Made by a program: the position numbers and the translations under genes. Under the pieces are notes generated by a model that did no database searches, was not told where the DNA came from, and worked only from the letters and a program-made list of their open reading frames with translations. From the NCBI RefSeq assembly GCF_009467795.1, contig NZ_WIAX01000009.1:1-64000 (forward strand): a stretch of DNA of 64,000 nucleotides, written 5' to 3'. Source of the DNA: Nesterenkonia halophila. GTDB taxonomy: Bacteria > Actinomycetota > Actinomycetes > Actinomycetales > Micrococcaceae. Of the stretch, positions 24,532 to 33,452 are shown one piece after another (position 1 is the first letter of the stretch; every line of letters begins with the position of its first letter).

Positions 24532-24605
24532 GGGGCGTTAGCTCAGCAGGTCAGAGCAGAGGACTCATAATCCTTTGGTCGCGGGTTCAAGTCCCGCACG
24601 CCCCA
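24532..24605 (+). tRNA. tRNA-Met (anticodon CAT), integration site of the element
   Basis: The 74-nt cloverleaf is intact: acceptor GGGGCGT/ACGCCCC, D-arm AGCTC...GAGC, anticodon stem AGGA/TCCT with loop CTCATAA, and T-arm GCGGG TTCAAGT CCCGC. The CAT anticodon fits elongator Met; Ile2 with a modified C cannot be strictly excluded. CCA is not encoded. A -10 TAGGAT lies at 24478-24483. The 3' half from 24561 is duplicated at 33405, so the element rebuilt this gene on insertion. Confidence 0.93.
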
Positions 24606-24608
24606 CCG
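24561..24608 (+). repeat. attL core (48 bp)
   Basis: The core starts at GGACTCATAATCC in the anticodon arm and runs past the tRNA 3' end to CCCCACCG. It is identical to 33405-33452, while the flanking bases differ on both sides. Confidence 0.95.
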
Positions 24609-24666
24609 TTGAAAGTCCTAGTCAGAGCGCTAGTAAAGGAAGTTTCTCACTAGGAAGGTAGAAGTC

Positions 24667-24687
24667 CAGTACGCAGTCAGTACGCAG
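24667..24687 (+). repeat. Arm-type integrase site, left arm
   Basis: Two head-to-tail copies of CAGTACGCAGT (the second lacking the last T) lie 59 bp inside attL and overlap the last codons of the integrase gene. The same 21 bp recur in the same orientation at 33282-33302. Confidence 0.75.
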
Positions 24688-25808
24688 CAGAATTGATTGC
24701 GCCGCCGAGGCCGGTCAGGTCGTCCTCGTACAGCGACGCATAGGCGTCCAGCGTCTCGGTGGCCGACTCGTGGCCGAGGGCGCGCTGCAGCGCCTTGATG
24801 TTCGCGCCGGCCTGGACCGCAATCGAGGCGTAGGTGCCGCGCAGGTCGTGGACGCGCATCGAGTCGTCCAGCTTCGCCTGACGCAGCGCCGGCCGGAACG
24901 TCCGGTTGAGCCAGTTCCCGGAGCGCAGCAGACCGCCGCCGGGGGAGTGGAAGACATCTTCTCGGTCGTCGTGGCCGTCGACGAGGGGGGCGGAGCTCAT
25001 CGGCCAGCGCCTCCGGCATCGGCACCCATCGTGTCGCGTGAGACTTCGGGGTGCTCTCGTGCAGGGTGCCGCCGATGTCGATATAGGTCCGCCGGACAGT
25101 GATCCTCAGCCGCTCGAAGTCCAGCGCTCCTACCTGTAGCGCCGTCGCTTCACCCCATCGCAGCCCCGTCGTCGCCATGGTCAGCAGCAGGGCACGATCC
25201 ACGGCGGTCGGCATCGCATCGGCAGCCCGGTGTAGCTCTGCGATGCTTAACCGAGTGTGCTCACGCCTGCCGCCGGCCCTGGGGAGCTTCACTGTCGCAG
25301 CAGGATTCACAGCGAGCAGGCGGTCCTCTACGGCCTGCTGCAGGGTCTTGCGGAGGATGAGGCCCGCGTGACGGGCGCGGGCGCCGGAGACCGCATCGTC
25401 GCCGCGCTGCAGGCCGACCAGCCATGCCGACACGTCACTGGTGAGCACGGCGTCCAGCGGGACATTCTCCCATCGAGGGAGGACACGAGATCGAGCGACG
25501 GAGCGGTACGAGTCCAGCGTCTTCGCCTTCACCTGTAGGCCGTCCATGTACCGCTGGAGTGCGGCCCCGACTGTCTGCCGTCCGGCCGCTGGGTCGACGT
25601 AGGTGCTCGTGGTGAGCGCGGTCGTCACCCCGTCTACGTGCCGTTGTGCGTCGACCTTGCGGTTAAACGCCTTGGTCTTCTCCTGGCCCGAGGGGTCGAC
25701 CCAGCGGGCGCGCCACCGCAACCCCTGGCCGTGTCGAGCAGAGGGGGTGCCGTCGCCTCGAGTCCAGAGGTCTTCAACCCCGGCTCGGCGATTACGACGC
25801 TGACTCAT
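24677..25808 (-). pseudogene. int: Tyrosine-recombinase integrase, frameshifted at a C6 run
   Basis: The intact family protein would be about 377 residues. The N-terminal SAM-like core-binding domain (about 75-165) and the first catalytic Arg (TGLRWGEATALQVG) are in one frame. The HxxR (VHDLRGTYASI), LGH and nucleophile Tyr (ETLDAYASLY) lie in the next frame, ending at 24677. The frames meet at about 24990, in a run of six C on the minus strand; five C would restore one continuous protein. As written, the catalytic site is split. This can be a true mutation, a sequencing indel or slippage. Start 25808 (MSQRRNRRAG) or 25844; it overlaps the repressor end slightly. Confidence 0.9.
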
Positions 25809-26439
25809 CCAGCTTTGCCCGTCGCCGAAGCTCAGGGTGAGCATTCACGAACCGCTGCATATTTGGACCTAGGCGACCCGTGTCAACGACTGTGATTCCG
25901 TGGTAGTCGAGGATGTTCGCCCGCTCCTGTGAGCTGAGACGCCGAGCGGAAGACAGGGCGTGCTTGGAGAAGTCCAGCCGGAGTTCGAATTGCTCTTGAA
26001 CTGTCTGGAGGGTCCCCTCCAGGAGTTCCTCTTGTTGCCCGCGCCAATCTGTACCCCGCCTATCTGCGGCACGGGCAAATGCTTTCTGCCGCTCGTAGTA
26101 GCGGGCAAGCGCCTCAACGGCATCGGACAGTGCGGTACCCGCCTCCAAGGCGGCGTCATACATCTCTTGATGGAGCTTGATCTGCTTCAACGTTTCCGGG
26201 GTGCTGAGCATGTCGTTCAGATCGTGCCCCAGCTCTCGGGAGATATCGGCGGCTTCATCGAGGCGGACCGGGCGAGTTCCAGATTCAATCTTCTGGACGG
26301 TCTGCTGGTGGAAGTTGTATCCCACCGCTGACATGCGCCTAGCGAGTTCCGCTTGCGAGATCTCTTGGGACTCGCGCTCCGACTTCATGTTCTCCCGGAA
26401 CGCGTCCAGTCGCGTCTCTCCTGGTGGCAGTTCGCTCAT
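25792..26439 (-). CDS. Cro/CI-type HTH repressor of the element
   Basis: The 215-residue protein has an N-terminal HTH_3 domain (about residues 14-75: QAELARRMSAVGYNFHQQTV then QKIESGTRPVRLDEAADI). A helical, charged C-terminal region (about 80-200) with no recognised peptidase domain follows, so SOS-type self-cleavage is not evident. The start at 26439 is favoured because TATGGT lies 6 nt before it on the minus strand, a leaderless arrangement; longer upstream frame is antisense to the excisionase. It is divergent from the early rightward operon and should control it. Confidence 0.88.
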   Translation of the reverse strand: MSELPPGETRLDAFRENMKSERESQEISQAELARRMSAVGYNFHQQTVQKIESGTRPVRLDEAADISRELGHDLNDMLSTPETLKQIKLHQEMYDAALEAGTALSDAVEALARYYERQKAFARAADRRGTDWRGQQEELLEGTLQTVQEQFELRLDFSKHALSSARRLSSQERANILDYHGITVVDTGRLGPNMQRFVNAHPELRRRAKLDESAS

Positions 26440-26451
26440 GACTCCACCATA

Positions 26452-26560
26452 CGACACTCCTCTGGGGTTGGCCTGGGTTGAACAGCGCACACCTGGTGTT
26501 GTGGGCGTGCTACACTTTTGAGTGAGGGCCAAAGAGATTGGCTCGACACTCACAGAGTGT
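26452..26560. promoter_or_regulatory. Early-control region with repeated ACACT operator half-sites and rightward promoter
   Basis: The 140-bp gap between repressor and excisionase holds CGACACTC at 26452 and 26544, an inverted pair ACACT-TTTG-AGTGA at 26512-26525 that includes the -10 TACACT (26511-26516), and a perfect ACACTC-ACA-GAGTGT at 26546-26560. ACACC-T-GGTGT at 26489-26499 is a further palindrome. These are candidate repressor operators. Confidence 0.6.
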
Positions 26561-26579
26561 AGGAAGGAAGGGTCAGCAG

Positions 26580-26804
26580 ATGACGACCATCGAAGAGCTC
26601 CCGCTGTACATGACCACGAAGCAAGTTTCGGAGCTGACCGGGGTGCCAGAGGGCACGCTGAAGTTCTACCGGAGTCGGCAGAGCGGAGGCCCGCGCAGCT
26701 TCGCACTGACTCCGCGCTCGATCCGCTACGCCCGCGAGGACGTCATGGCATGGATCGAGGACCGGCACGCACAGGGCGTCGGCGGCATCGAGGGGGCGGC
26801 GTGA
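26580..26804 (+). CDS. Excisionase-like small HTH (MerR/HTH_17) protein
   Basis: The 74-residue basic protein is almost only a winged HTH: MTTKQVSELTGVPEGTLKFY then YAREDVMAWIEDR. This is the pattern of HTH_17/excisionase-type DNA-binding proteins that bend att-site DNA or act as regulators. The first gene of the rightward operon, it has a strong AGGAAGGAAGGG site before ATG 26580. Excision control is inferred from position and family. Its stop overlaps a following ATG (TGATG). Confidence 0.87.
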   Translation: MTTIEELPLYMTTKQVSELTGVPEGTLKFYRSRQSGGPRSFALTPRSIRYAREDVMAWIEDRHAQGVGGIEGAA

Positions 26805-26908
26805 TGAGTACGCAACAGCCCCAGAACACAGAGAAGCGGCCTGGAGTCTCCCGCCAAGAAGCTCACCAGGCCGCTACCGATTCAGACACCTATCAGGAGG
26901 TATCCGCT

Positions 26909-27328
26909 ATGTCCGACGATACAGGAACCCCGAGCAACTCCGGAACCGCGCAGGCCGAGGAATGGCATCCGTGGTGGTGCGCCCGCGGCGAGTACTGCTC
27001 GCCCAATAGCGCGGGGGACGCCATCCACTACTCGCCGCCGCGTCGACTCGTCGCCACCCTCCCGTCCGAAGGCCCTGACGGTGGGGAGGACTTCACCGCG
27101 GGTGTCGCGGCCGTCGCCCCCACCGAGTGGGGCGAAGTGTACGACCAGGCTGCCTGCCTGAGTATCCACAACGTGTCGGGCATCGGCGACATCGACCTTC
27201 ATTTGGGCGTCAACTCACTCCGCGACTTCGCCGATTGGCTGATGGCGATGGCCGATCTCATCGAGTCGGTCCACGCGGGCCAGCGCCCGGACCTCGCCGA
27301 ACTCGAGGGGGCGGTCTCCAATGCCTGA
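26909..27328 (+). CDS. DUF6907-like hypothetical protein
   Basis: The 139-residue protein contains EEWHPWWCARGEYC near the start and IHYSPPRRL, then an acidic beta-rich region and a helical end (LRDFADWLMAMADLIESVHA). It resembles the actinobacterial DUF6907 group often seen on phages and integrative elements; the name is from memory. An ideal CAGGAGG site 8 nt before ATG 26909 decides this start. An in-frame ATG at 26804 overlapping the excisionase stop could add 35 residues. The function is unknown. Confidence 0.78.
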   Translation: MSDDTGTPSNSGTAQAEEWHPWWCARGEYCSPNSAGDAIHYSPPRRLVATLPSEGPDGGEDFTAGVAAVAPTEWGEVYDQAACLSIHNVSGIGDIDLHLGVNSLRDFADWLMAMADLIESVHAGQRPDLAELEGAVSNA

Positions 27329-27572
27329 GGAGCAGATCGTCACTGTCGCGCACGAGCGGCTGTCCGATGTCTTCGCGGTCGTCTCGCAGGTCTCCAGCGC
27401 CGACGGTGCACCCCACTACCGGCGCAAGGTCCACCTGTCGCTGAGCGCGGCTCAGAACGCAGTCAAGCGGGCGCGAGAGCGCGGGCTGCAGGCAATGATC
27501 GTGCTCTGCCGCATGGAGCCCGTCGAGGCGGAGGAGGACGCATGGACTCACGGTTCCCGACTCACTACCTGA
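27321..27572 (+). CDS. Hypothetical 83-residue protein
   Basis: I do not recognise it. It overlaps the previous gene by 8 bp and the next by 31 bp, as expected of a compact phage-type operon. The sequence is predicted beta-strand then helix (KVHLSLSAAQNAVKRARERG), with no Cys pair, signal or membrane segment. Confidence 0.7.
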   Translation: MPEEQIVTVAHERLSDVFAVVSQVSSADGAPHYRRKVHLSLSAAQNAVKRARERGLQAMIVLCRMEPVEAEEDAWTHGSRLTT

Positions 27573-28261
27573 ACTACCGGGATGTCCTGCGACTCTCTCC
27601 TGCGGCGTTCCGCACGTTCGTCCTCAGCACCGCGTGGTCAGTCTCGAACATGACCGACGGCAGTATCCCTCGGGCAGACCTGCCCCTGGTGCCGTTCGCC
27701 ACTGAGGAGCACGCCGCGGAACTCGTCTCCTCGGGGCTGTGGTCCGAGTCGGACGACGGCTACGTCATCACGGAGTTCGCTAAGCACCAGACATCGGCAG
27801 CTCGGATGGAGGCGTCGCTGACGAACCGCCGCGAGACCGACCGTGCTCGGAAGCAACGTGAACGGAAGCACCGCTCCGGCGATCACTCCTCGTGCCTGTC
27901 GGAGCACTGCGACGAGGCAGACTCAGCCCCTCCTCAGGAGGAGTCACGGGGACTGTCACGTGACCGTCACGTGAGGTTAGAAGGCAAGGCAGAGGCAGAG
28001 GCAGAGGCAGAGGCAGTCCAGGGAGTTCACGAATTTGTGGATGAGGAGACTGGCGAAGTCTTCGACTCAGCATCGACCTCGGATTCTTCAGATTCGACCC
28101 CGCTCTCGTCGCGGGTGCCGTCGTTCTCGGAGGCTCCGGAGTATCGGTCGGCTGATCCGTTCGGGTCGACGTCGAGTTCGTCGGCTTCGTCGCCTGATGG
28201 TCCGTCGTCGGTGGACTTCGATGCGCTGTTGGATGAGTTCCGGAATCCGGGGGTGGCCTGA
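27542..28261 (+). CDS. Replication-initiator-like / phage replisome-organiser-like protein
   Basis: The 239-residue protein begins with a winged-helix-like domain (about residues 1-85: RLSPAAFRTFVLSTAWSVSN then MTDGSIPRADLPLVPFATEE). This type starts many actinophage replication proteins. A very basic region (NRRETDRARKQRERKHR) and a long acidic Ser/Asp-rich tail with a KAEAEAEAEAV tract follow. The tract is encoded by GGCAGA repeats, and two TCACGTGA sites lie just upstream within the gene. The DNA-replication role is an inference from architecture and position; the function is not certain. Confidence 0.6.
   Translation: MDSRFPTHYLNYRDVLRLSPAAFRTFVLSTAWSVSNMTDGSIPRADLPLVPFATEEHAAELVSSGLWSESDDGYVITEFAKHQTSAARMEASLTNRRETDRARKQRERKHRSGDHSSCLSEHCDEADSAPPQEESRGLSRDRHVRLEGKAEAEAEAEAVQGVHEFVDEETGEVFDSASTSDSSDSTPLSSRVPSFSEAPEYRSADPFGSTSSSSASSPDGPSSVDFDALLDEFRNPGVA
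27956..28016. repeat. Twin TCACGTGA sites and GGCAGA hexanucleotide array inside the rep-like gene
   Basis: TCACGTGA (27956-27963) and TCACGTGA (27967-27974) are spaced 11 bp apart, one helical turn. Nearly five tandem GGCAGA units follow at 27988-28016. Iteron-like repeats inside a replication gene often mark an origin. The array is also prone to in-frame slippage. Confidence 0.55.
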
Positions 28262-28452
28262 TGTGCAGCACATGCGGTTACAGCTCGTGTGCTTGTTCGT
28301 ATATCGCCGAGCTTGGTCCTGGTGGTGAGCATGAGGCGCTGGTGTATGTGGCGCGTCGGATGATGTGGGCTCCTCGTCCTCATCGTGGCGGTTGCCCGTG
28401 TCCGGGGTGCTTCTCGGAGCGGCTGTCGTCGTGGCAGGGGGTGCCGTCATGA
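28261..28452 (+). CDS. Small Cys-rich protein (possible zinc-binding)
   Basis: The 63-residue protein has seven Cys: CSTCGYSSCAC at the start and CPCPGC near the end. Pairs spaced by two or three residues could bind one or two Zn2+ ions. The start ATG overlaps the previous stop (TGATG) and its own stop overlaps the next start, so it is translationally coupled on both sides. The function is unknown. Confidence 0.7.
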   Translation: MCSTCGYSSCACSYIAELGPGGEHEALVYVARRMMWAPRPHRGGCPCPGCFSERLSSWQGVPS

Positions 28453-29297
28453 GTGATCCAGGCATGATTCGTCGCTTCTGGGAGGTGCCTCGTGAGGGCG
28501 TCAAGGTCGACGAGGAGGACCCGCTGATCGGCTGGCGGGTCGATGAGGTCGCCCCGGATGGTCGGCTGCGCGGGGTCGGTCGTGACTGTGTTCTCCGCGC
28601 TGACCGGTGCACGGCCCCCACCGGTCGACTGGTGAAGGTCCGGTCACTGGTAGCCCACGTGGCCCCGCACCCCAACTGCGAGTGTGGACCGCGGCTGCTC
28701 GGCGACGTGCAGGCCCTGTCGAAGTTCTGGGGCGACCTCCGCGACTACTCGGTCGATGCGGGGCTGCGGTGGGCTCCACCCGGCTCGAAAGTCGTCGGTA
28801 GATACTCGGCGATGGGGAGGGTGTGCCCTGGGTATGCGGTCCCGGTCGATGACCCGCCGACGACGATCCGGATCGGTGCTGCTCGTCTGCTGGCGGTCTT
28901 CGCTTCTGGCGACGTCGACGTGAAGGCGCTGCGGCGAACCTACCCGGACGTGCCGGTCCGGCCAGCGTCGGAGATCCCCGACGGGGCGTTCGGATGGTTG
29001 GCCGATCCGGGCGCTGTGGTGCTGCAGGCGACGCCTCATCGGCGCCACATCACAGTTCGGACGGGCGCGGCCACGCTGGAGATCCCCCGGTCGTGGCTGG
29101 AGCCGCCAGCAGTCCGTGAGGCGATCTGGAAGGCCATCGGCGGCGAGTGGGCGATGGCAGGCCCGGTCTCGGTTGTCGCTCAGCGGGTCGTGTATCCGCT
29201 GACGGTCGACGAGCTGAACTATCGGCAGATGTTGGGTGTGGCGTTTGGAGTCTGCATCGCACTCGGCAACCTTCCGGAAATTGAGTTTGAACTCTAG
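28449..29297 (+). CDS. Hypothetical element protein with H-x5-C-x-C motif
   Basis: I do not recognise this 282-residue protein. A possible metal site APHPNCECG lies at about residues 78-86. The rest is mixed alpha/beta with regions such as WLADPGAVVLQATPHRRHI. The start is ATG 28449 by ATGA overlap; the open frame upstream overlaps the Cys-rich gene. No signal or membrane segment is seen. Confidence 0.72.
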   Translation: MSDPGMIRRFWEVPREGVKVDEEDPLIGWRVDEVAPDGRLRGVGRDCVLRADRCTAPTGRLVKVRSLVAHVAPHPNCECGPRLLGDVQALSKFWGDLRDYSVDAGLRWAPPGSKVVGRYSAMGRVCPGYAVPVDDPPTTIRIGAARLLAVFASGDVDVKALRRTYPDVPVRPASEIPDGAFGWLADPGAVVLQATPHRRHITVRTGAATLEIPRSWLEPPAVREAIWKAIGGEWAMAGPVSVVAQRVVYPLTVDELNYRQMLGVAFGVCIALGNLPEIEFEL

Positions 29298-29310
29298 GAG
29301 GAACGGGATA

Positions 29311-29712
29311 ATGACTATCTACTATTCGACATACAGCAAGGGCCTGGGGTCTGCAACGGGTGAGCACGAGGAGCCGCTGCCTACCGAAGTCCCGCGCGAC
29401 GACCTCGAAGCCGCCGAGCACGGTGGCGCACCGAAGTCGACACCGCCGGGGCCGCTCCCCGTCGACCGCTCCTCAGTTCACCTCGCGCAGATGTTTGCCG
29501 AGAAGTCCCGGGCAGATCTCCTCGCCGAGAAACTCCGGACTGCGGAGACCGACGTTCGGAAGCTCCGAAAGATGGTGAAGGACGCCCGGCAGGACGCGGG
29601 CCGCTACCGCCATCGCCTCCGCGCCACTGAGGTCGACCTGGAGACTGCCCAGGCGACCATCGCGCACCTTCGCGGCATCGCCGACGTCGTGACCGAAGGG
29701 GAGGCCGCATGA
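29311..29712 (+). CDS. Hypothetical coiled-coil protein
   Basis: The 133-residue protein has an acidic Pro-rich N-terminus (about 1-50) and a coiled coil in the C-terminal half (about 60-125: EKLRTAETDVRKLRKMVKDA, RLRATEVDLETAQATIAHL). GGAGG at 29298-29302 is spaced 8 nt from ATG 29311. Its coiled-coil segment RYRHRLRATEVDLETA resembles RYRLRLRDAEAELEST of the putative scaffold two genes downstream, suggesting a paralogous or partner relation. Confidence 0.72.
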   Translation: MTIYYSTYSKGLGSATGEHEEPLPTEVPRDDLEAAEHGGAPKSTPPGPLPVDRSSVHLAQMFAEKSRADLLAEKLRTAETDVRKLRKMVKDARQDAGRYRHRLRATEVDLETAQATIAHLRGIADVVTEGEAA

Positions 29713-29981
29713 GTACCACCCCGAAGATGTACACGGCGAAGATTCGAGCACGCGCTACGGCCTATGTCCTGGCCGTCGCCCGCAACGATGAGCACCGTCA
29801 CGAGATGCTCGCCGACCTCACCCAGGATGAGCTCCTCCACGTCTTCGAGGGCATCGCGCTTATCGGAGCGAGGACGATGCGGGAACACACCCGCGGCGCC
29901 GAGGTGAACACTCTTGAGCGGATGCTCCGGCTCGAACTCCAGACGATGAACAACACTGATTCTTCCCAGGAAGGAAGCTGA
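29709..29981 (+). CDS. Hypothetical 90-residue helical protein
   Basis: A largely alpha-helical protein (YVLAVARNDEHRHEMLADLT, IALIGARTMREHTRGAEVN) starting with ATGA overlap on the previous stop and ending 2 bp before the putative scaffold gene. Not recognised. The position next to scaffold and capsid genes is consistent with a head-assembly or regulatory role. Confidence 0.68.
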   Translation: MSTTPKMYTAKIRARATAYVLAVARNDEHRHEMLADLTQDELLHVFEGIALIGARTMREHTRGAEVNTLERMLRLELQTMNNTDSSQEGS

Positions 29982-29983
29982 AT

Positions 29984-30619
29984 ATGAGCGACGAGACGAC
30001 TGAGAACATGACCGACGAGCAGAACACGGCCCAGGAGGCCGCAGGAGCCCCGGAGACGACCCAGGAAGAGACGGAGGTCCACGGGGATGTAGAAGCTCAG
30101 GAAGGCGCACAGGACCCCGAGAAGCAGCAGGAGCAGGACGAGCAGCAGAACCCCAACGCGGAGGCCAAGCGCTATCGCCTCCGCCTGCGGGACGCCGAGG
30201 CTGAGCTGGAGTCCACCCGCACCGCCATCGCCGCACTGCAGGAGCAGGTGCTCTCCACCGCACTCGGTGACGGCATCGACGTCGCGCCGGACACCTCGAA
30301 GAACCACGCGGTCGACCCCGACACGCTGCAGCCGAAGCCGATCACGGTGTCTCTCCTGCACCCCGATGACCTGTTCAGCATCGGCGGTGTGGACAAGGCC
30401 GAGCTGTTCACCGACGGCGCGCTGGACCAGGCGAAGCTCTCCCAGGCGGTCGGGCAGCTCCACATCACGCGGCCCGAGCTGTTCCGGGAAGGTCGGCACG
30501 GAGACCCGATCCATCAGCCGGTTCCGACCGCGGGGAACCAGCCGGACACTCAGGCCGCGATCAAGCGTGCCCTCGAAGGCGGCGGCGGATGGCAGGGCGT
30601 GATTCAGAACCGCGGCTGA
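29984..30619 (+). CDS. Putative capsid scaffolding protein
   Basis: The 211-residue protein has an acidic, Gln/Glu-rich N-terminus (about 1-62), a short coiled coil (about 65-90) and a C-terminal domain ending GGGGWQGVIQNRG. Acidic and helical proteins directly before the major capsid gene are usually scaffolds in phages whose capsid protein lacks a built-in delta domain. This role is inferred from position and composition. AGGAAGCTGAAT precedes ATG 29984. A terminator follows before the capsid promoter, so the two genes can be expressed independently. Confidence 0.65.
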   Translation: MSDETTENMTDEQNTAQEAAGAPETTQEETEVHGDVEAQEGAQDPEKQQEQDEQQNPNAEAKRYRLRLRDAEAELESTRTAIAALQEQVLSTALGDGIDVAPDTSKNHAVDPDTLQPKPITVSLLHPDDLFSIGGVDKAELFTDGALDQAKLSQAVGQLHITRPELFREGRHGDPIHQPVPTAGNQPDTQAAIKRALEGGGGWQGVIQNRG

Positions 30620-30641
30620 CCAACAACTGGCACTGCGCCTC

Positions 30642-30670
30642 GCCCTGATCACCCACACGGTGGTCGGGGC
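30642..30670 (+). terminator. Terminator after the putative scaffold gene
   Basis: The arms GCCCTGATCACC and GGTGGTCGGGGC pair over 12 bp (two G-U pairs) around a CACAC loop, 22 bp after the stop codon. It separates the early operon from the capsid gene. Confidence 0.75.
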
Positions 30671-30691
30671 GGGGTCACGTCAGCCCAGCAT

Positions 30692-30857
30692 GATATAATC
30701 AAATCAGACGTTCCACGTTTCCCGAGGAAACAACGAACATCACCGAGACCCCAGTAGGGGTTTCCGGAGCACCCCGAGGGTCGCTGCGGATCAAGACACA
30801 CGTTCTGATCTACAGGCGACCCTTTTCTGTGTCCACGGGTCGCCGGAAAGGCCAACA
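30692..30857 (+). promoter_or_regulatory. Extended -10 promoter and structured leader of the capsid gene
   Basis: TGATATAAT at 30691-30699 is a perfect extended -10, the best sigma-70-like box in the window. The leader of about 150 nt can form three hairpins: GTTTCC-CGA-GGAAAC (about 30717), ACCCC-AGT-AGGGGT (about 30753) and GGCGACCC/GGGTCGCC with a 14-nt loop (about 30816-30845). The last ends directly before the GGAAAGG ribosome-binding site. Confidence 0.65.
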
Positions 30858-31712
30858 ATGGCTCTCAACACTACTTCTACCGGCCGCGCATGGCTCCCCG
30901 ACGCGACCGGTGACCTCATCCTCCGGCCCGTCGCCCGCGAGTCCGTCGCGCTAACCGCACTCGGTGGACCGGTCACCGCGCCCGCCCAGACCAACCGGTT
31001 CCGCATCCCGATCGTCGCCGCGGACCCGTCGGCCTCCTACGTCGCCGAGGGCGCAGAGATCCCCCTGAGCGACGGGGAACTCTCCGAGGTCTCCGACGTC
31101 TTCCACAAGCTCGCCGGTCTCTCGGTGATCTCCCGTGAGCTCGCCGACGATTCGAGCCCCGGTGCTGCTGATCAGATTGGGCAGGGCCTCGCCCGGGATA
31201 TCGCCAAGAAGCTGGACGCCAACTTCTTCGGCGCCGGGGGTCTCAACGCGCCGATGGGCCTCGAAGATCTCGCCGGGGTTACCGTCCACGAGACCAGCGG
31301 CACCTCGTGGGCTGACACCGACGCGTTCGTCTCCGCGATCTACGGCGCCGAGGGGGAGGGTGCGACCCTGGGTGCGTTCGTCGCTAACCCGACTGATGCT
31401 CTGGCGCTGGCCCAGCTCCGAGAGGCCGACACCAGCAACAAGCACCTGCTGCAGCCCGACCCGACCCAGCCGCTGCGGCGACTGCTGGCCGGCATCCCGC
31501 TGCTCACTTCGCCGGCCGTCACTGTCGGCACCGTGTGGGGCCTGCCGACCGAGGGCCGGCTGCAGGTCTGCGTGCGCGAGGATGTGCGCGTCGACGTCGA
31601 CGGCTCGGCGTACTTCTCCAGTGATCAGGTTGCTGTGCGTGCGACTCTGCGACACACGAATCTGTGTGCCCATGAAGCTTCGGTGCAGAAGGTCATGCTT
31701 GCCGCCGCCTGA
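30858..31712 (+). CDS. Major capsid protein, HK97 fold
   Basis: The 284-residue protein has hallmarks of the phage major capsid family. The N-arm region LPDATGDLILRPVARESVAL is followed by the E-loop segment FRIPIVAADPSASYVAEGA and by the spine-helix region KLAGLSVISRELADDS, then IAKKLDANFFGAGG and the P-/A-domains (AFVANPTDALALAQLREADT, GIPLLTSPAV, YFSSDQVAVRATLRHT). No protease or delta domain is fused. Encapsulin is less likely given the phage context and the sequence. Portal, protease and terminase genes are absent nearby, so assembly would rely on a helper or yield a modified particle. Confidence 0.9.
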   Translation: MALNTTSTGRAWLPDATGDLILRPVARESVALTALGGPVTAPAQTNRFRIPIVAADPSASYVAEGAEIPLSDGELSEVSDVFHKLAGLSVISRELADDSSPGAADQIGQGLARDIAKKLDANFFGAGGLNAPMGLEDLAGVTVHETSGTSWADTDAFVSAIYGAEGEGATLGAFVANPTDALALAQLREADTSNKHLLQPDPTQPLRRLLAGIPLLTSPAVTVGTVWGLPTEGRLQVCVREDVRVDVDGSAYFSSDQVAVRATLRHTNLCAHEASVQKVMLAAA

Positions 31713-32299
31713 TGCTCACCTGAGTCCCTGAGAGGCCCTGAGAGGCCCTGAGAAGCGCCACACGTGCCCCGTTCGCACCAGCCCGCCAACGGGCCACGCG
31801 GACGGGGCACACGTGCATGTGGACGAGGACTGCGGCACTTGCCGCAGTTGAGGAGCACGACGACGTGATCAACCGCTGAGCACCTGACCCGCTCCGGGTC
31901 ACCTGCCGACGACAGGACCAACACGCACCCCCGGGGTTACCTCCCCCCGGGTGGCCCATGCCGTCGTACCACCAGTGCATGGCGCTCTACTCACGATCCG
32001 ATTTTCTAGGGGTATTCATATATCGCGTTGTTTGGCCCGTTATTGATGCTTTCCGGGCATCGTGGGGCGGGTCTGTGCGCTCCTGGTACTGAGTAACGGA
32101 TATTCAGCGTCATTCCGGGGGTGTAGGCGGATCGGGCGATCAACTGGCGAAATTTCGCCAGTTGCCGTTACGGCAAAGCGCCAGGTCAGGCGCATGGCCT
32201 CGAATCCTCCACGAGGGCCGGGGGGATATCTCCAGTGCCCCGGGGTGGAGCGGAGGAGGGCACCCCGAGGGGGTGGGGCCGGGGGCGAAGTGTATCCGC
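31713..32299. other. Non-coding region after the capsid gene (587 bp) with nested inverted repeats
   Basis: No convincing gene is present. The region holds three units of CCCTGAGAGG (31726-31755, the last CCCTGAGAAG). A nested inverted repeat has outer arms GTGCCCCGT (31764-31772) and ACGGGGCAC (31802-31810) around an inner GCCCG-CCAA-CGGGC (31781-31794). TGACCCG-CTC-CGGGTCA lies near 31885, and an A+T-rich stretch around 31995-32045. It may contain the transcription terminator, a packaging site or an origin. Confidence 0.6.
32141..32164. terminator. Perfect 24-bp palindrome (possible bidirectional terminator)
   Basis: The arm CAACTGGCGAAA is followed directly by its complement. It lies between the convergent capsid gene and the minus-strand stalk protein gene, with no U-tract beyond the six central A/T pairs. 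Confidence 0.5.
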
Positions 32300-33136
32300 T
32301 CACTTCAGGTCGCGGTGAAAGCCTCCGCCAGTGTCCCGCTGGTCGATGACTGTCTCGCCGGTCAGCGGGTCGTCGAGGTCCAGCGTCTCGATGGTCTCCG
32401 CGTCCCAGGCTGCATTCAGCGCCGGGACATCCCCGCCGCCCTCCGCGGGGAGGGTGGCGTGCACAGCGACCCTCGCGGCGTCCGGGTATTCCTCGGTCGC
32501 GATATCCAGCGCGTCCAGCGTGTCCTGCTGGATGCCGGTCCGCATAAGATCCACCGTGAAGTTCTCGGACGCTGCCCATTCGAGGAAGACCTGCATCCCT
32601 ACGCCGCCGACCTCGTAGTAGCTGACAGTGAACTCGGTGTCGTAACGCTCGATGTCGCGAGGCTGGGATGGGTCGGCTGCTTCCTTCTCGGTCTCCTCAC
32701 TGGGCTTCGATGTCTCAGTTGGGGTGGGTGTCTCGGCCGGCTCCTCCGATTCCTCAGCAGCAGACTTGGACTCCTCTGCCTCTCGGCTGGCCTCAGCCTC
32801 AGCCGACTTGGAAGCCTGGGCGTCGCGGCTAGCTTCGGCTTCTGCAGATTCCGATGCCTCGGCCTCGTGGCTAGCGTCAGCTTCAGCGGACCGGGAGGCC
32901 TCAGCCTCTGCCGCCTTGCTCTCCTGCGCTTCCTGACTGGCTTCAGCGGCCTCGGCGGCTTCCTGTTCGTCGACGATCTCCTGCATCCCGTCCGGGTCGA
33001 CCGCCCACAGAATGCCGCCCAAGGCCAATACGCCCCCAATGAGGAGCACAAAACCTGTCCCCAAACCAGCGGCGATCTTCACCACCAGTGGCCACCTTTT
33101 GATGCGCTGCCATAGCGACAGCTTGCCCTCCGCCAT
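32300..33136 (-). CDS. Cargo membrane protein with Ala/Glu/Ser stalk
   Basis: The 278-residue protein has a basic N-terminus (MAEGKLSLWQRIKRWP) and one membrane helix (about residues 17-45, VVKIAAGLGTGFVLLIGGVL). A repetitive stalk (about 55-135) contains units such as SAEAEASRDAQASK and SAEAEASREAEESK. A Pro/Thr/Glu linker and a C-terminal globular domain of about 110 residues (YDTEFTVSYYEVGGVGMQVF) follow. The topology suggests an extracytoplasmic domain on a rod. It has its own promoter (TAGGCT, 33174-33169 minus) and GGGAGG. The position near attR, opposite to the phage genes, is typical of lysogeny-expressed cargo such as superinfection exclusion; this is inference. Confidence 0.78.
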   Translation of the reverse strand: MAEGKLSLWQRIKRWPLVVKIAAGLGTGFVLLIGGVLALGGILWAVDPDGMQEIVDEQEAAEAAEASQEAQESKAAEAEASRSAEADASHEAEASESAEAEASRDAQASKSAEAEASREAEESKSAAEESEEPAETPTPTETSKPSEETEKEAADPSQPRDIERYDTEFTVSYYEVGGVGMQVFLEWAASENFTVDLMRTGIQQDTLDALDIATEEYPDAARVAVHATLPAEGGGDVPALNAAWDAETIETLDLDDPLTGETVIDQRDTGGGFHRDLK

Positions 33137-33281
33137 GTGCGCCTCCCAGGCTGTGCGACGGTGGGGAGAGCCTAGTCCTGCGCTATGGCAGCAGGCGATA
33201 CATCCTGGCCGGGCTTCGAGTAGTGCAACGTATCGAGACGTCCTCGAAGGCCCGCGATGTGAATGCGAACGCCTTCCACTT

Positions 33282-33302
33282 CAGTACGCAGTCAGTACGC
33301 AG
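33282..33302 (+). repeat. Arm-type integrase site, right arm
   Basis: Same 21 bp as 24667-24687 (tandem CAGTACGCAGT units), 103 bp inside attR. The remainder of 33137-33404 holds the promoter of the stalk gene and no ORF. Confidence 0.75.
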
Positions 33303-33404
33303 TAACCTGAGTTTTCGTAGTCTTGAGTCGCCTCACGTCAACCCAATAAACCCTTCTGACCTGGCCGTTCGAGGTTGGCGCCTCGTCAGACGTACCTCTG
33401 AATC

Positions 33405-33452
33405 GGACTCATAATCCTTTGGTCGCGGGTTCAAGTCCCGCACGCCCCACCG
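33405..33452 (+). repeat. attR core (48 bp; tRNA-Met 3' remnant)
   Basis: Identical to 24561-24608: it carries the 3' half of the tRNA from the anticodon arm to past the acceptor, without the 5' half, so it is a remnant and not a tRNA gene. Confidence 0.95.

What the first reader, a model, noticed from the sequence alone, without database searches (positions are those of the whole stretch)
24561..33452. Capsid-only phage satellite or mini-prophage in tRNA-Met
An 8.84-kb block between 48-bp att cores encodes integrase, Cro/CI-type repressor, excisionase-like and replication-like proteins, a putative scaffold and an HK97 capsid protein. It has no terminase, portal, protease, tail, or lysis gene. 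That set differs from a defective prophage with random loss and fits a satellite that forms its own capsid, or redirects a helper's capsid, while borrowing packaging. Layout and size recall phiRv1/phiRv2 of mycobacteria and capsid-forming satellites (general knowledge); several of its seven small genes look undescribed.
Basis: partly seen in the sequence, partly recalled or inferred. Interest (0 to 1): 0.82.

Follow-up and report, generated by a model that had tools for sequence, protein, structure and literature searches.

The report
Phage satellite carrying its own capsid
An 8.8-kb mobile element sits in a tRNA gene and carries the two genes for a virus shell but no recognised gene for filling it with DNA or giving it a tail; related compact elements in other actinobacteria suggest it is a parasite of larger phages, not a broken phage.

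Summary
Exact 48-bp repeats (24561-24608, 33405-33452) bound an element in tRNA-Met; the nearest relative has the empty site. It encodes integrase, repressor, excisionase-like and replication-initiation proteins, a putative scaffold and a complete HK97-fold capsid protein (model pLDDT 89.6). No terminase, portal, protease, tail or lysis gene was recognised.

A random remnant is unlikely: of 33 att-bounded elements (window included, 5.7-11.1 kb) all have integrase and capsid genes, 29 a scaffold-like gene, and 26 neither large terminase nor portal found. The capsid's nearest phage records are twelve 10.9-11.1-kb Mycolicibacterium 'phages'.

Most likely it is a helper-dependent satellite that builds its own small shell and borrows portal, motor and tail. 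Mycobacterium 'candidate PICIs' (PMC10654092) are the same kind; cf-PICIs differ by carrying portal and terminases. Relatives' capsid genes have a long leader rich in one hairpin class, but the window's own leader fails the strict pattern. No particle, helper or circle was shown.

The parts
24532..24607 (+). host tRNA-Met (CAT), integration site
   Evidence: ARAGORN; Rfam tRNA
24561..24608 (.). attL, 48-bp core
   Evidence: exact repeat; empty site
24667..24687 (.). arm-type repeat, left (CAGTACGCAGTCAGTACGCAG)
   Evidence: the CAGTACGCAG motif recurs (reverse strand) at the ends of L025 and L034, whose integrases are 64.6% and 71.0% identical over the N-terminal piece
24677..25844 (-). tyrosine integrase, in two reading frames (25001-25844 and 24677-25000), frame broken near 25000
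   Evidence: pieces searched apart
25792..26439 (-). Cro/CI-type repressor
   Evidence: HTH_3 4.3e-7; phrog_3 5.2e-8
26580..26804 (+). excisionase-like HTH_17 protein
   Evidence: phrog_66
26909..27328 (+). DUF6907-like small protein
   Evidence: PF21848 2.4e-4, below the curated cut-off
27321..27572 (+). small protein shared with L024, L025, L026, L034, L091, L101
   Evidence: tblastn
27542..28261 (+). RepA-like replication initiation protein
   Evidence: phrog_2447 2.1e-15; Microbacterium and Gordonia phage relatives
28261..28452 (+). small Cys-rich protein, relatives in L032 and L036
28449..29297 (+). 282-aa protein of unknown function
   Evidence: no phage hit; no hit in 98 related loci; 2 distant hits in 245 genomes of the family, own excluded; unusable model, pLDDT 32
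29311..29712 (+). 133-aa protein, relative in L034; short scaffold-like stretch
29709..29981 (+). 90-aa protein, relative in L024
29984..30619 (+). putative scaffolding protein
   Evidence: upstream of the capsid gene; relatives; home-made scaffold model hits in 29 of 33 elements
30620..30857 (+). 238-nt leader of the capsid gene
   Evidence: strict hairpin pattern not met in the window itself
30858..31712 (+). HK97-fold major capsid protein, 284 aa, no N-terminal delta-type extension
31713..32299 (.). 587-bp stretch without a called gene; packaging signal possible but untested
   Evidence: inference
32300..33136 (-). repeat-rich protein with a putative membrane segment, possible cargo or immunity gene
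   Evidence: role is inference
33282..33302 (.). arm-type repeat, right
33405..33452 (.). attR, 48-bp core

Best explanation
It is a helper-dependent phage satellite. Shown by sequence: integration into tRNA-Met, repressor and excisionase-like genes, its own replication initiator, and an open HK97-fold capsid gene with a scaffold-like gene before it and no recognised packaging or tail gene. Inferred: when a helper phage infects, repression is lifted, the element excises and replicates from its own initiator, scaffold and capsid protein assemble a shell suited to about 9 kb on the helper's portal, the helper's terminase fills it through a helper-like packaging signal, and the helper's tail and lysis genes complete release. 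The present copy may be stuck because its integrase frame is broken, unless that is a draft-assembly error.
For: Intact att pair, arm-like repeats and empty site. 33 non-redundant att-bounded elements, window included: integrase 33/33, capsid 33/33, scaffold-like 29/33, large terminase plus portal 5/33, split large terminase 2/33, neither found 26/33. They sit in 13 kinds of tRNA gene, so they inserted independently. Two bounded elements (tRNA-Arg, tRNA-Thr) share one genome of the window's genus (L025, L026). Capsid dN/dS 0.03-0.52 in 10 of 11 computed pairs, 1 saturated. Capsid model pLDDT 89.6, pTM 0.86, best solved match HK97 Head II E 1.8e-15. Twelve deposited M. aichiense 'phages' of 10.87-11.08 kb share the capsid lineage; the one I opened (Suzzy) is annotated with a 97-aa terminase, adaptor, stopper, scaffold, capsid and tape measure, but no portal.
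Against: No helper, particle or excised form of this element was seen. The integrase is frameshifted. The own assembly has no second PF05065 hit and no TerL by two models, but is only 65.5% complete. The scaffold assignment is indirect. TerL and portal absence in relatives rests on home-made models, Pfam/PHROGs on selected large proteins and protein size; L082 (475 aa) and L160 (571 aa) keep unresolved large proteins. No packaging signal was identified.
Confidence: 0.72

Rival explanations
1. A satellite whose capsid protein does not build the shell alone but co-assembles with, shrinks or poisons the helper's capsid (capsid redirection or interference).
For: No portal or motor found in the window or in 25 other bounded elements. 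Known satellites such as P4 and SaPIs redirect helper capsids (PMC10690885 introduction, passages seen).
Against: The capsid protein is full length with a complete HK97 fold and is paired with a scaffold-like gene. The 12 M. aichiense records are deposited as complete linear genomes with the same capsid lineage, which suggests packaged DNA.
Confidence: 0.18
2. A decaying remnant of a larger prophage that happened to keep its capsid and scaffold genes.
For: The integrase is frameshifted; no packaging genes.
Against: A similarly reduced set recurs in many independent insertions of similar size with intact att pairs, 20 of 33 with arm-like repeats; capsid dN/dS below 1 in the computed pairs; no larger phage with a close capsid among 50,697 records.
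Confidence: 0.07
3. A domesticated HK97-fold shell (encapsulin-like compartment) carried on an integrated island.
For: Foldseek also lists encapsulins (9fy6, 6nj8, 8vjo) below the phage capsids.
Against: A sequence-profile search of solved structures gives 26 hits, all labelled as capsid or head proteins and no encapsulin; there is a scaffold-like gene and no recognised cargo enzyme; integrase and att bound the set.
Confidence: 0.03

Closest known systems
Mycobacterium candidate PICIs, including phiRv1/phiRv2 (PMC10654092, passages, section 9 read)
   Same: Integrase plus major capsid gene, at tRNA genes in the examples with tyrosine integrases, some with scaffold, helicase or terminase genes; proposed to be satellites.
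   Different: Described there for Mycobacterium and defined just by integrase plus capsid. Here a reduced capsid-plus-scaffold set is traced through several actinobacterial families with att boundaries. I did not compare with phiRv1/phiRv2 sequences.
Mycolicibacterium phages Suzzy, WillG, Alyssa1 and nine others (OR387110-OR387121)
   Same: Capsid of the same lineage (33-34% identity, 81% coverage), scaffold before capsid, 10.9-11.1 kb, no annotated portal in the one opened (Suzzy).
   Different: Suzzy has a serine integrase, a 97-aa terminase, head-tail adaptor and stopper and a tape measure. I opened 1 of 12 records. No paper on them found.
Capsid-forming PICIs (cf-PICIs)
   Same: Satellite with its own capsid that borrows from a helper.
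   Different: cf-PICIs carry portal, protease, connectors, both terminase subunits and HNH (definition read in PMC10690885); none was convincingly found here. Predicted Actinomycetota PICIs with a portal are mentioned in PMC10690885 section 14.
MiniFlayer / MulchRoom Streptomyces satellites (PMC10690885)
   Same: Actinobacterial satellites with capsid and scaffold genes.
   Different: They encode both terminase subunits, portal and adaptor and lack recognised primases (section 12); the window element has a replication initiator and lacks the packaging set.
EfCIV583 (PMC3675006)
   Same: About 12-kb integrated satellite packaged in a small shell.
   Different: Encodes no capsid; takes helper capsids (passages).

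Membership tests
phage satellite (general) | integrates at a specific site with its own recombinase | tested here: met
   att pair and empty site; integrase pieces, but frame broken in this copy
phage satellite (general) | lacks genes needed for an autonomous virion | tested here: met
phage satellite (general) | mobilised and packaged only with a helper phage | not testable with these tools
   needs induction experiments
cf-PICI | own major capsid protein | tested here: met
cf-PICI | own portal, head maturation protease and head-tail connectors | tested here: not met
   no match; no ORF of 350 aa or more between integrase and attR
cf-PICI | own large and small terminase and HNH | tested here: not met
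   no convincing match (one phrog_3377 HNH-endonuclease hit, E 0.026, on the repeat-rich protein); no TerL in the own assembly
[quoted passage not shown]
   definition in PMC10654092 methods passage
Mycobacterium-type candidate PICI (integrase plus capsid region) | not a remnant with nucleotide similarity to known phages | tested here: inconclusive
   protein searches (capsid; integrase piece) show no phage record at 60% identity or more; a nucleotide search of the block was not run
encapsulin | encapsulin-type shell protein by sequence | tested here: not met
   no encapsulin among 26 profile hits

The most novel reading that the evidence does not exclude
Actinobacteria hold a distinct satellite class that keeps only the shell (scaffold plus capsid protein) and outsources portal, motor and tail, so the satellite capsid must dock on a foreign portal. 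Its capsid gene is expressed from a separate long leader carrying repeated pentaloop hairpins, a candidate RNA control element that matched no Rfam family where scanned.
Probability: 0.45. Interest if true: 0.75.

Novelty: new variant of a known kind. Interest (0 to 1): 0.55.

Why it matters
Known satellites mostly either reshape the helper's shell or bring the whole head with its own motor. A class that brings only scaffold and capsid would show that a satellite shell can be built on a foreign portal, which makes capsid-portal compatibility and helper range directly testable. It would also mean that many sub-12-kb 'cryptic prophages' of actinobacteria could be working parasites. The capsid-gene leader, if confirmed, would be a new RNA control element of viral shells.

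Tried and rejected
Encapsulin-like shell: rejected. Random prophage remnant: disfavoured. cf-PICI membership: rejected for the window (portal, terminase not met). Function of the 282-aa protein at 28449-29297: no phage relative, viral-contig scan empty, two distant genomes of the family, unusable model. First viral-contig scan with the single capsid protein found nothing; with a 4-row alignment it gave 8 loci. Plasmid collection, searched with L138's capsid: 4 records at 21-32%. Integrase N-terminal piece in phages: 486 records, all below 60% identity. Rfam: no match to the leader in the window (E<=1) or in L164, L102, L091 (E<=0.1). Resident helper: no TerL in the own assembly with PF03354 and phrog_2, which proves little at 65.5% completeness; phrog_2 also rang in 11 of 14 control genomes and may miss some terminases. 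I did not build a covariance model of the leader, and did not look for a packaging signal beyond noting gene-free DNA. Capsid trees: the label 'tRNA-att bounded' is scattered on the first tree (17 changes, no fewer than shuffled labels), perhaps because contig edges hide att sites; the label 'TerL plus portal' is clustered on the second (2 changes against a shuffled mean of 4.8).

Errors of mine: the query called g281 was taken one base out of frame; it was redone in frame. That mis-framed piece also entered the training of the simple gene caller, whose gene calls trained. The gene calls are my own script, not a standard program. Scripts wrote the first residue of called proteins as M.
Full report
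What is there. The window holds an integrated element from 24561 to 33452. Its ends are exact 48-bp copies of the 3' part of tRNA-Met (24532-24607). Inside both ends lies the same 21-bp sequence, itself a near-tandem repeat, typical of integrase arm sites by general knowledge. In the nearest relative of the same genus (L109; flanking glycosyltransferase 96% identical) the tRNA runs directly into DNA matching the right flank and its methyltransferase gene, 85% identical: the empty site. L111 and L112 show the same two neighbours with the methyltransferase at 59% and 48%; in the other loci of that search it was not seen in the stretch held.

Genes. Reading from attL: integrase and Cro/CI-type repressor on the minus strand, then a plus-strand run of excisionase-like protein, DUF6907-like protein, an 83-aa protein, a RepA-like replication initiator, a small Cys-rich protein, a 282-aa unknown, two small proteins, a putative scaffold and the capsid protein, and a repeat-rich protein on the minus strand. 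No gene for terminase, portal, protease, tail or lysis was recognised; the weak matches were a tail-fibre family (0.0055) and an HNH family (0.026) on the repeat-rich protein and a minor-head family (0.09) on the 133-aa protein. No ORF of 350 aa or more lies between integrase and attR. The integrase is broken near 25,000: two pieces in different frames each match Phage_integrase. Relatives with one open frame exist in L025, L026 and L034. The source genome is a 65.5% complete draft in 29 contigs, so an assembly error cannot be excluded.

Capsid. With 36 related sequences AlphaFold2 gave a confident model (pLDDT 89.6, pTM 0.86); the best solved match is HK97 Head II (E 1.8e-15). A profile search of solved sequences gave 26 hits, all labelled as capsid or head proteins and none an encapsulin. 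At 284 aa it has no N-terminal delta-type extension, consistent with a separate scaffold gene. The scaffold itself is assigned by place and by relatives: 2 of 6 relatives searched hit a scaffold family (L023, L160).

Relatives. The capsid protein found matches in 17 of 147 related genomes, own included (E<=1e-3), and a 7-row alignment in 47 of 396 genomes of the order, own included (E<=1e-10). In the phylum sample 9 of 396 genomes, own included, matched a 36-row alignment at E<=1e-30, with at most 6 candidates scored per genome, so a lower bound. A scan of named genomes gave 40 loci, in Microlunatus, Acidipropionibacterium, Actinomyces, Rhodococcus, Arthrobacter, Demequina, Brevibacterium, Nocardia, Mycobacterium, Streptomyces and others.

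Boundaries. Among 51 sources examined first (window plus 50 loci), 21 have an exact tRNA repeat of 18 bp or more around the capsid gene. That leaves 33 elements of 5.7-11.1 kb, att copies included. Loci cut by contig ends cannot show both sites. Thirteen kinds of tRNA are used (Met, Thr, Arg, Lys, Val, Tyr, Gly, Phe, Ser, Ala, Leu, Asn, His). In 20 of 33, the inner 250 bp of both ends share a word of 11 bases or more, against 0.4 expected from mononucleotide shuffles; the window's CAGTACGCAG motif recurs in L025 and L034, whose integrases are the closest of those compared (N-terminal piece 64.6% and 71.0% identical).

Gene content of the 33 (my own gene caller and home-made models). Integrase 33, capsid 33, scaffold-like 29. 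Large terminase plus portal in 5 (L029, L031, L095, L102, L174). Terminase split into ATPase and nuclease reading frames in 2 (L023, L077; Pfam support). Small terminase-like cluster in 2 (L027, L088). Neither large terminase nor portal found in 26, the window included. Many of the larger other proteins of these 26 match primase, helicase or replication families, by Pfam or PHROGs (D5_N, DUF3987, Prim-Pol, AAA_25, DUF3631, PHROG primases and initiators) or only by my AAA_25 model (L092, L096, L103, L159, L185). Unresolved large ones are L082 (475 aa) and L160 (571 aa, beside a Prim-Pol gene); L147 (580 aa) has a weak primase match. Not every protein was searched. The absence claim is therefore good but not absolute.

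Not a remnant. Reduced elements of like design sit at different tRNAs in different families. Capsid dN/dS was 0.03-0.52 in 10 of 11 computed pairs, one saturated; of 12 pairs asked, L076/L090 was not computed. These pairs include elements that are not capsid-only. Against 50,697 phage records the window's capsid has 21 matches: 12 are M. aichiense records of 10.87-11.08 kb at 33-34% identity, the other nine are phages of 49-80 kb of Coprococcus, Ruminococcus and similar hosts at 25-31%. L146's capsid gives the same picture (24 records); L164's adds many distant full-size phages, but its best 12 are again the M. aichiense set (149 records, 25 listed). Suzzy, the one of these records I opened, is annotated with a 97-aa terminase, adaptor, stopper, serine integrase, scaffold, capsid and tape measure, and no portal.

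How it probably works. Helper infection relieves the repressor; the element excises, replicates from its own initiator, makes scaffold and capsid protein, and borrows portal, terminase, tail and lysis. Only the anatomy is shown. The chief rival is that the capsid protein redirects or poisons the helper's shell. How a satellite shell meets a foreign portal is what makes the class interesting.

A second pattern: the capsid-gene leader. Of the 35 rows (the 33 elements plus L182 and L091), 32 have more than 100 nt without a called gene on that strand before the capsid start (window 238); the exceptions are L157, L159 and L169 (10-29 nt), where a small called ORF or start may be wrong. In 84 leaders (9 near-duplicates dropped of 93), 61 hold a hairpin with a stem of 4 or more and a CNGNN-type pentaloop, 123 in all, against 11.5 leaders and 12.5 hairpins on average in dinucleotide shuffles, maximum 18 and 20. 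With stems of 5 or more and a narrower loop set, density is 4.21 per kb in leaders on the capsid strand, 0.32 on the other strand, and 0.14-0.20 elsewhere. Inside the 33 elements, with stems of 4 or more: 6.26 per kb in leaders against 1.38 in other intergenic DNA and 1.39 in coding DNA. I chose the loop class after looking at the sequences. On seven loci fetched later, six gave a leader: 4 of 6 match, 7 hairpins, against 0.72 and 0.78 in shuffles, maximum 3 and 4. In six full-size actinophages, taken because they had turned up in earlier searches, the gap before the capsid gene is -4 to 27 nt and 1 of 6 has such a hairpin. Against this reading: 23 of 84 leaders lack the strict pattern, among them the window's own, L023 and L025, and no covariance analysis was done.

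Comparison with what is known. Mycobacterium 'candidate PICIs', defined as regions with integrase and major capsid gene, tRNA-integrated in the three examples with tyrosine integrases, some with scaffold or terminase genes, are in print, and phiRv1/phiRv2 are counted among them (PMC10654092, passages, section 9 read). So the kind is known. cf-PICIs (definition read in PMC10690885) need portal, protease, connectors and terminases: not met. A survey of actinobacterial prophages says that elements below 15 kb could be satellites or PICIs (PMC10023795, passages); PMC10803314 and PMC11389934 were seen in passages. My searches for a description of the capsid-plus-scaffold-only form outside Mycobacterium showed none in their listings; the held library is open-access only, most listed papers were not opened, and the original cf-PICI paper was not read.

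Verdict. A real, well-bounded satellite-type element, a new variant of a known kind. The window copy is probably a recent guest whose integrase is broken or mis-assembled.

Noticed in passing
leaders of 84 capsid genes, for example L164, L102, L150, L022 (window leader 30620-30857): Long capsid-gene leaders enriched in oriented hairpins with CNGNN-type pentaloops; no Rfam match in those scanned. The window's own leader does not meet the strict pattern.
   Followed up: partly
L091 (whole contig, 9,087 bp): Contig with a 95-bp terminal overlap, so probably circular, holding scaffold-like and capsid genes but no integrase found by my model: perhaps an extrachromosomal or plasmid-like form. Its proteins were not searched in Pfam.
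   Followed up: no
L138, 2973-3809 and 12061-12897: Two capsid genes 84% identical, 9.1 kb apart on one viral contig: possibly two elements in tandem.
   Followed up: no
L023 11095-12509 and L077 7388-8824: Large terminase apparently split into separate ATPase and nuclease reading frames in two diverged elements.
   Followed up: partly
L139 and L172: Nocardia caishijiensis contig of 10,888-10,900 bp, about the size of an element and with the capsid gene; the longer version has inverted 6-bp ends.
   Followed up: no
L025 796-1344, L087 7782-8963, L169 11621-13639: Variable genes near the ends of relatives: SocA/Panacea domain, RmrA-like regulator with M78 peptidase domain, mad8/SspH-like defence hits, as expected for satellite cargo.
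   Followed up: partly
window 32300-33136: Repeat-rich protein with a weak PADLOC hit to PD-T4-6 (1.7e-5, over the low-complexity stretch, probably not meaningful).
   Followed up: partly
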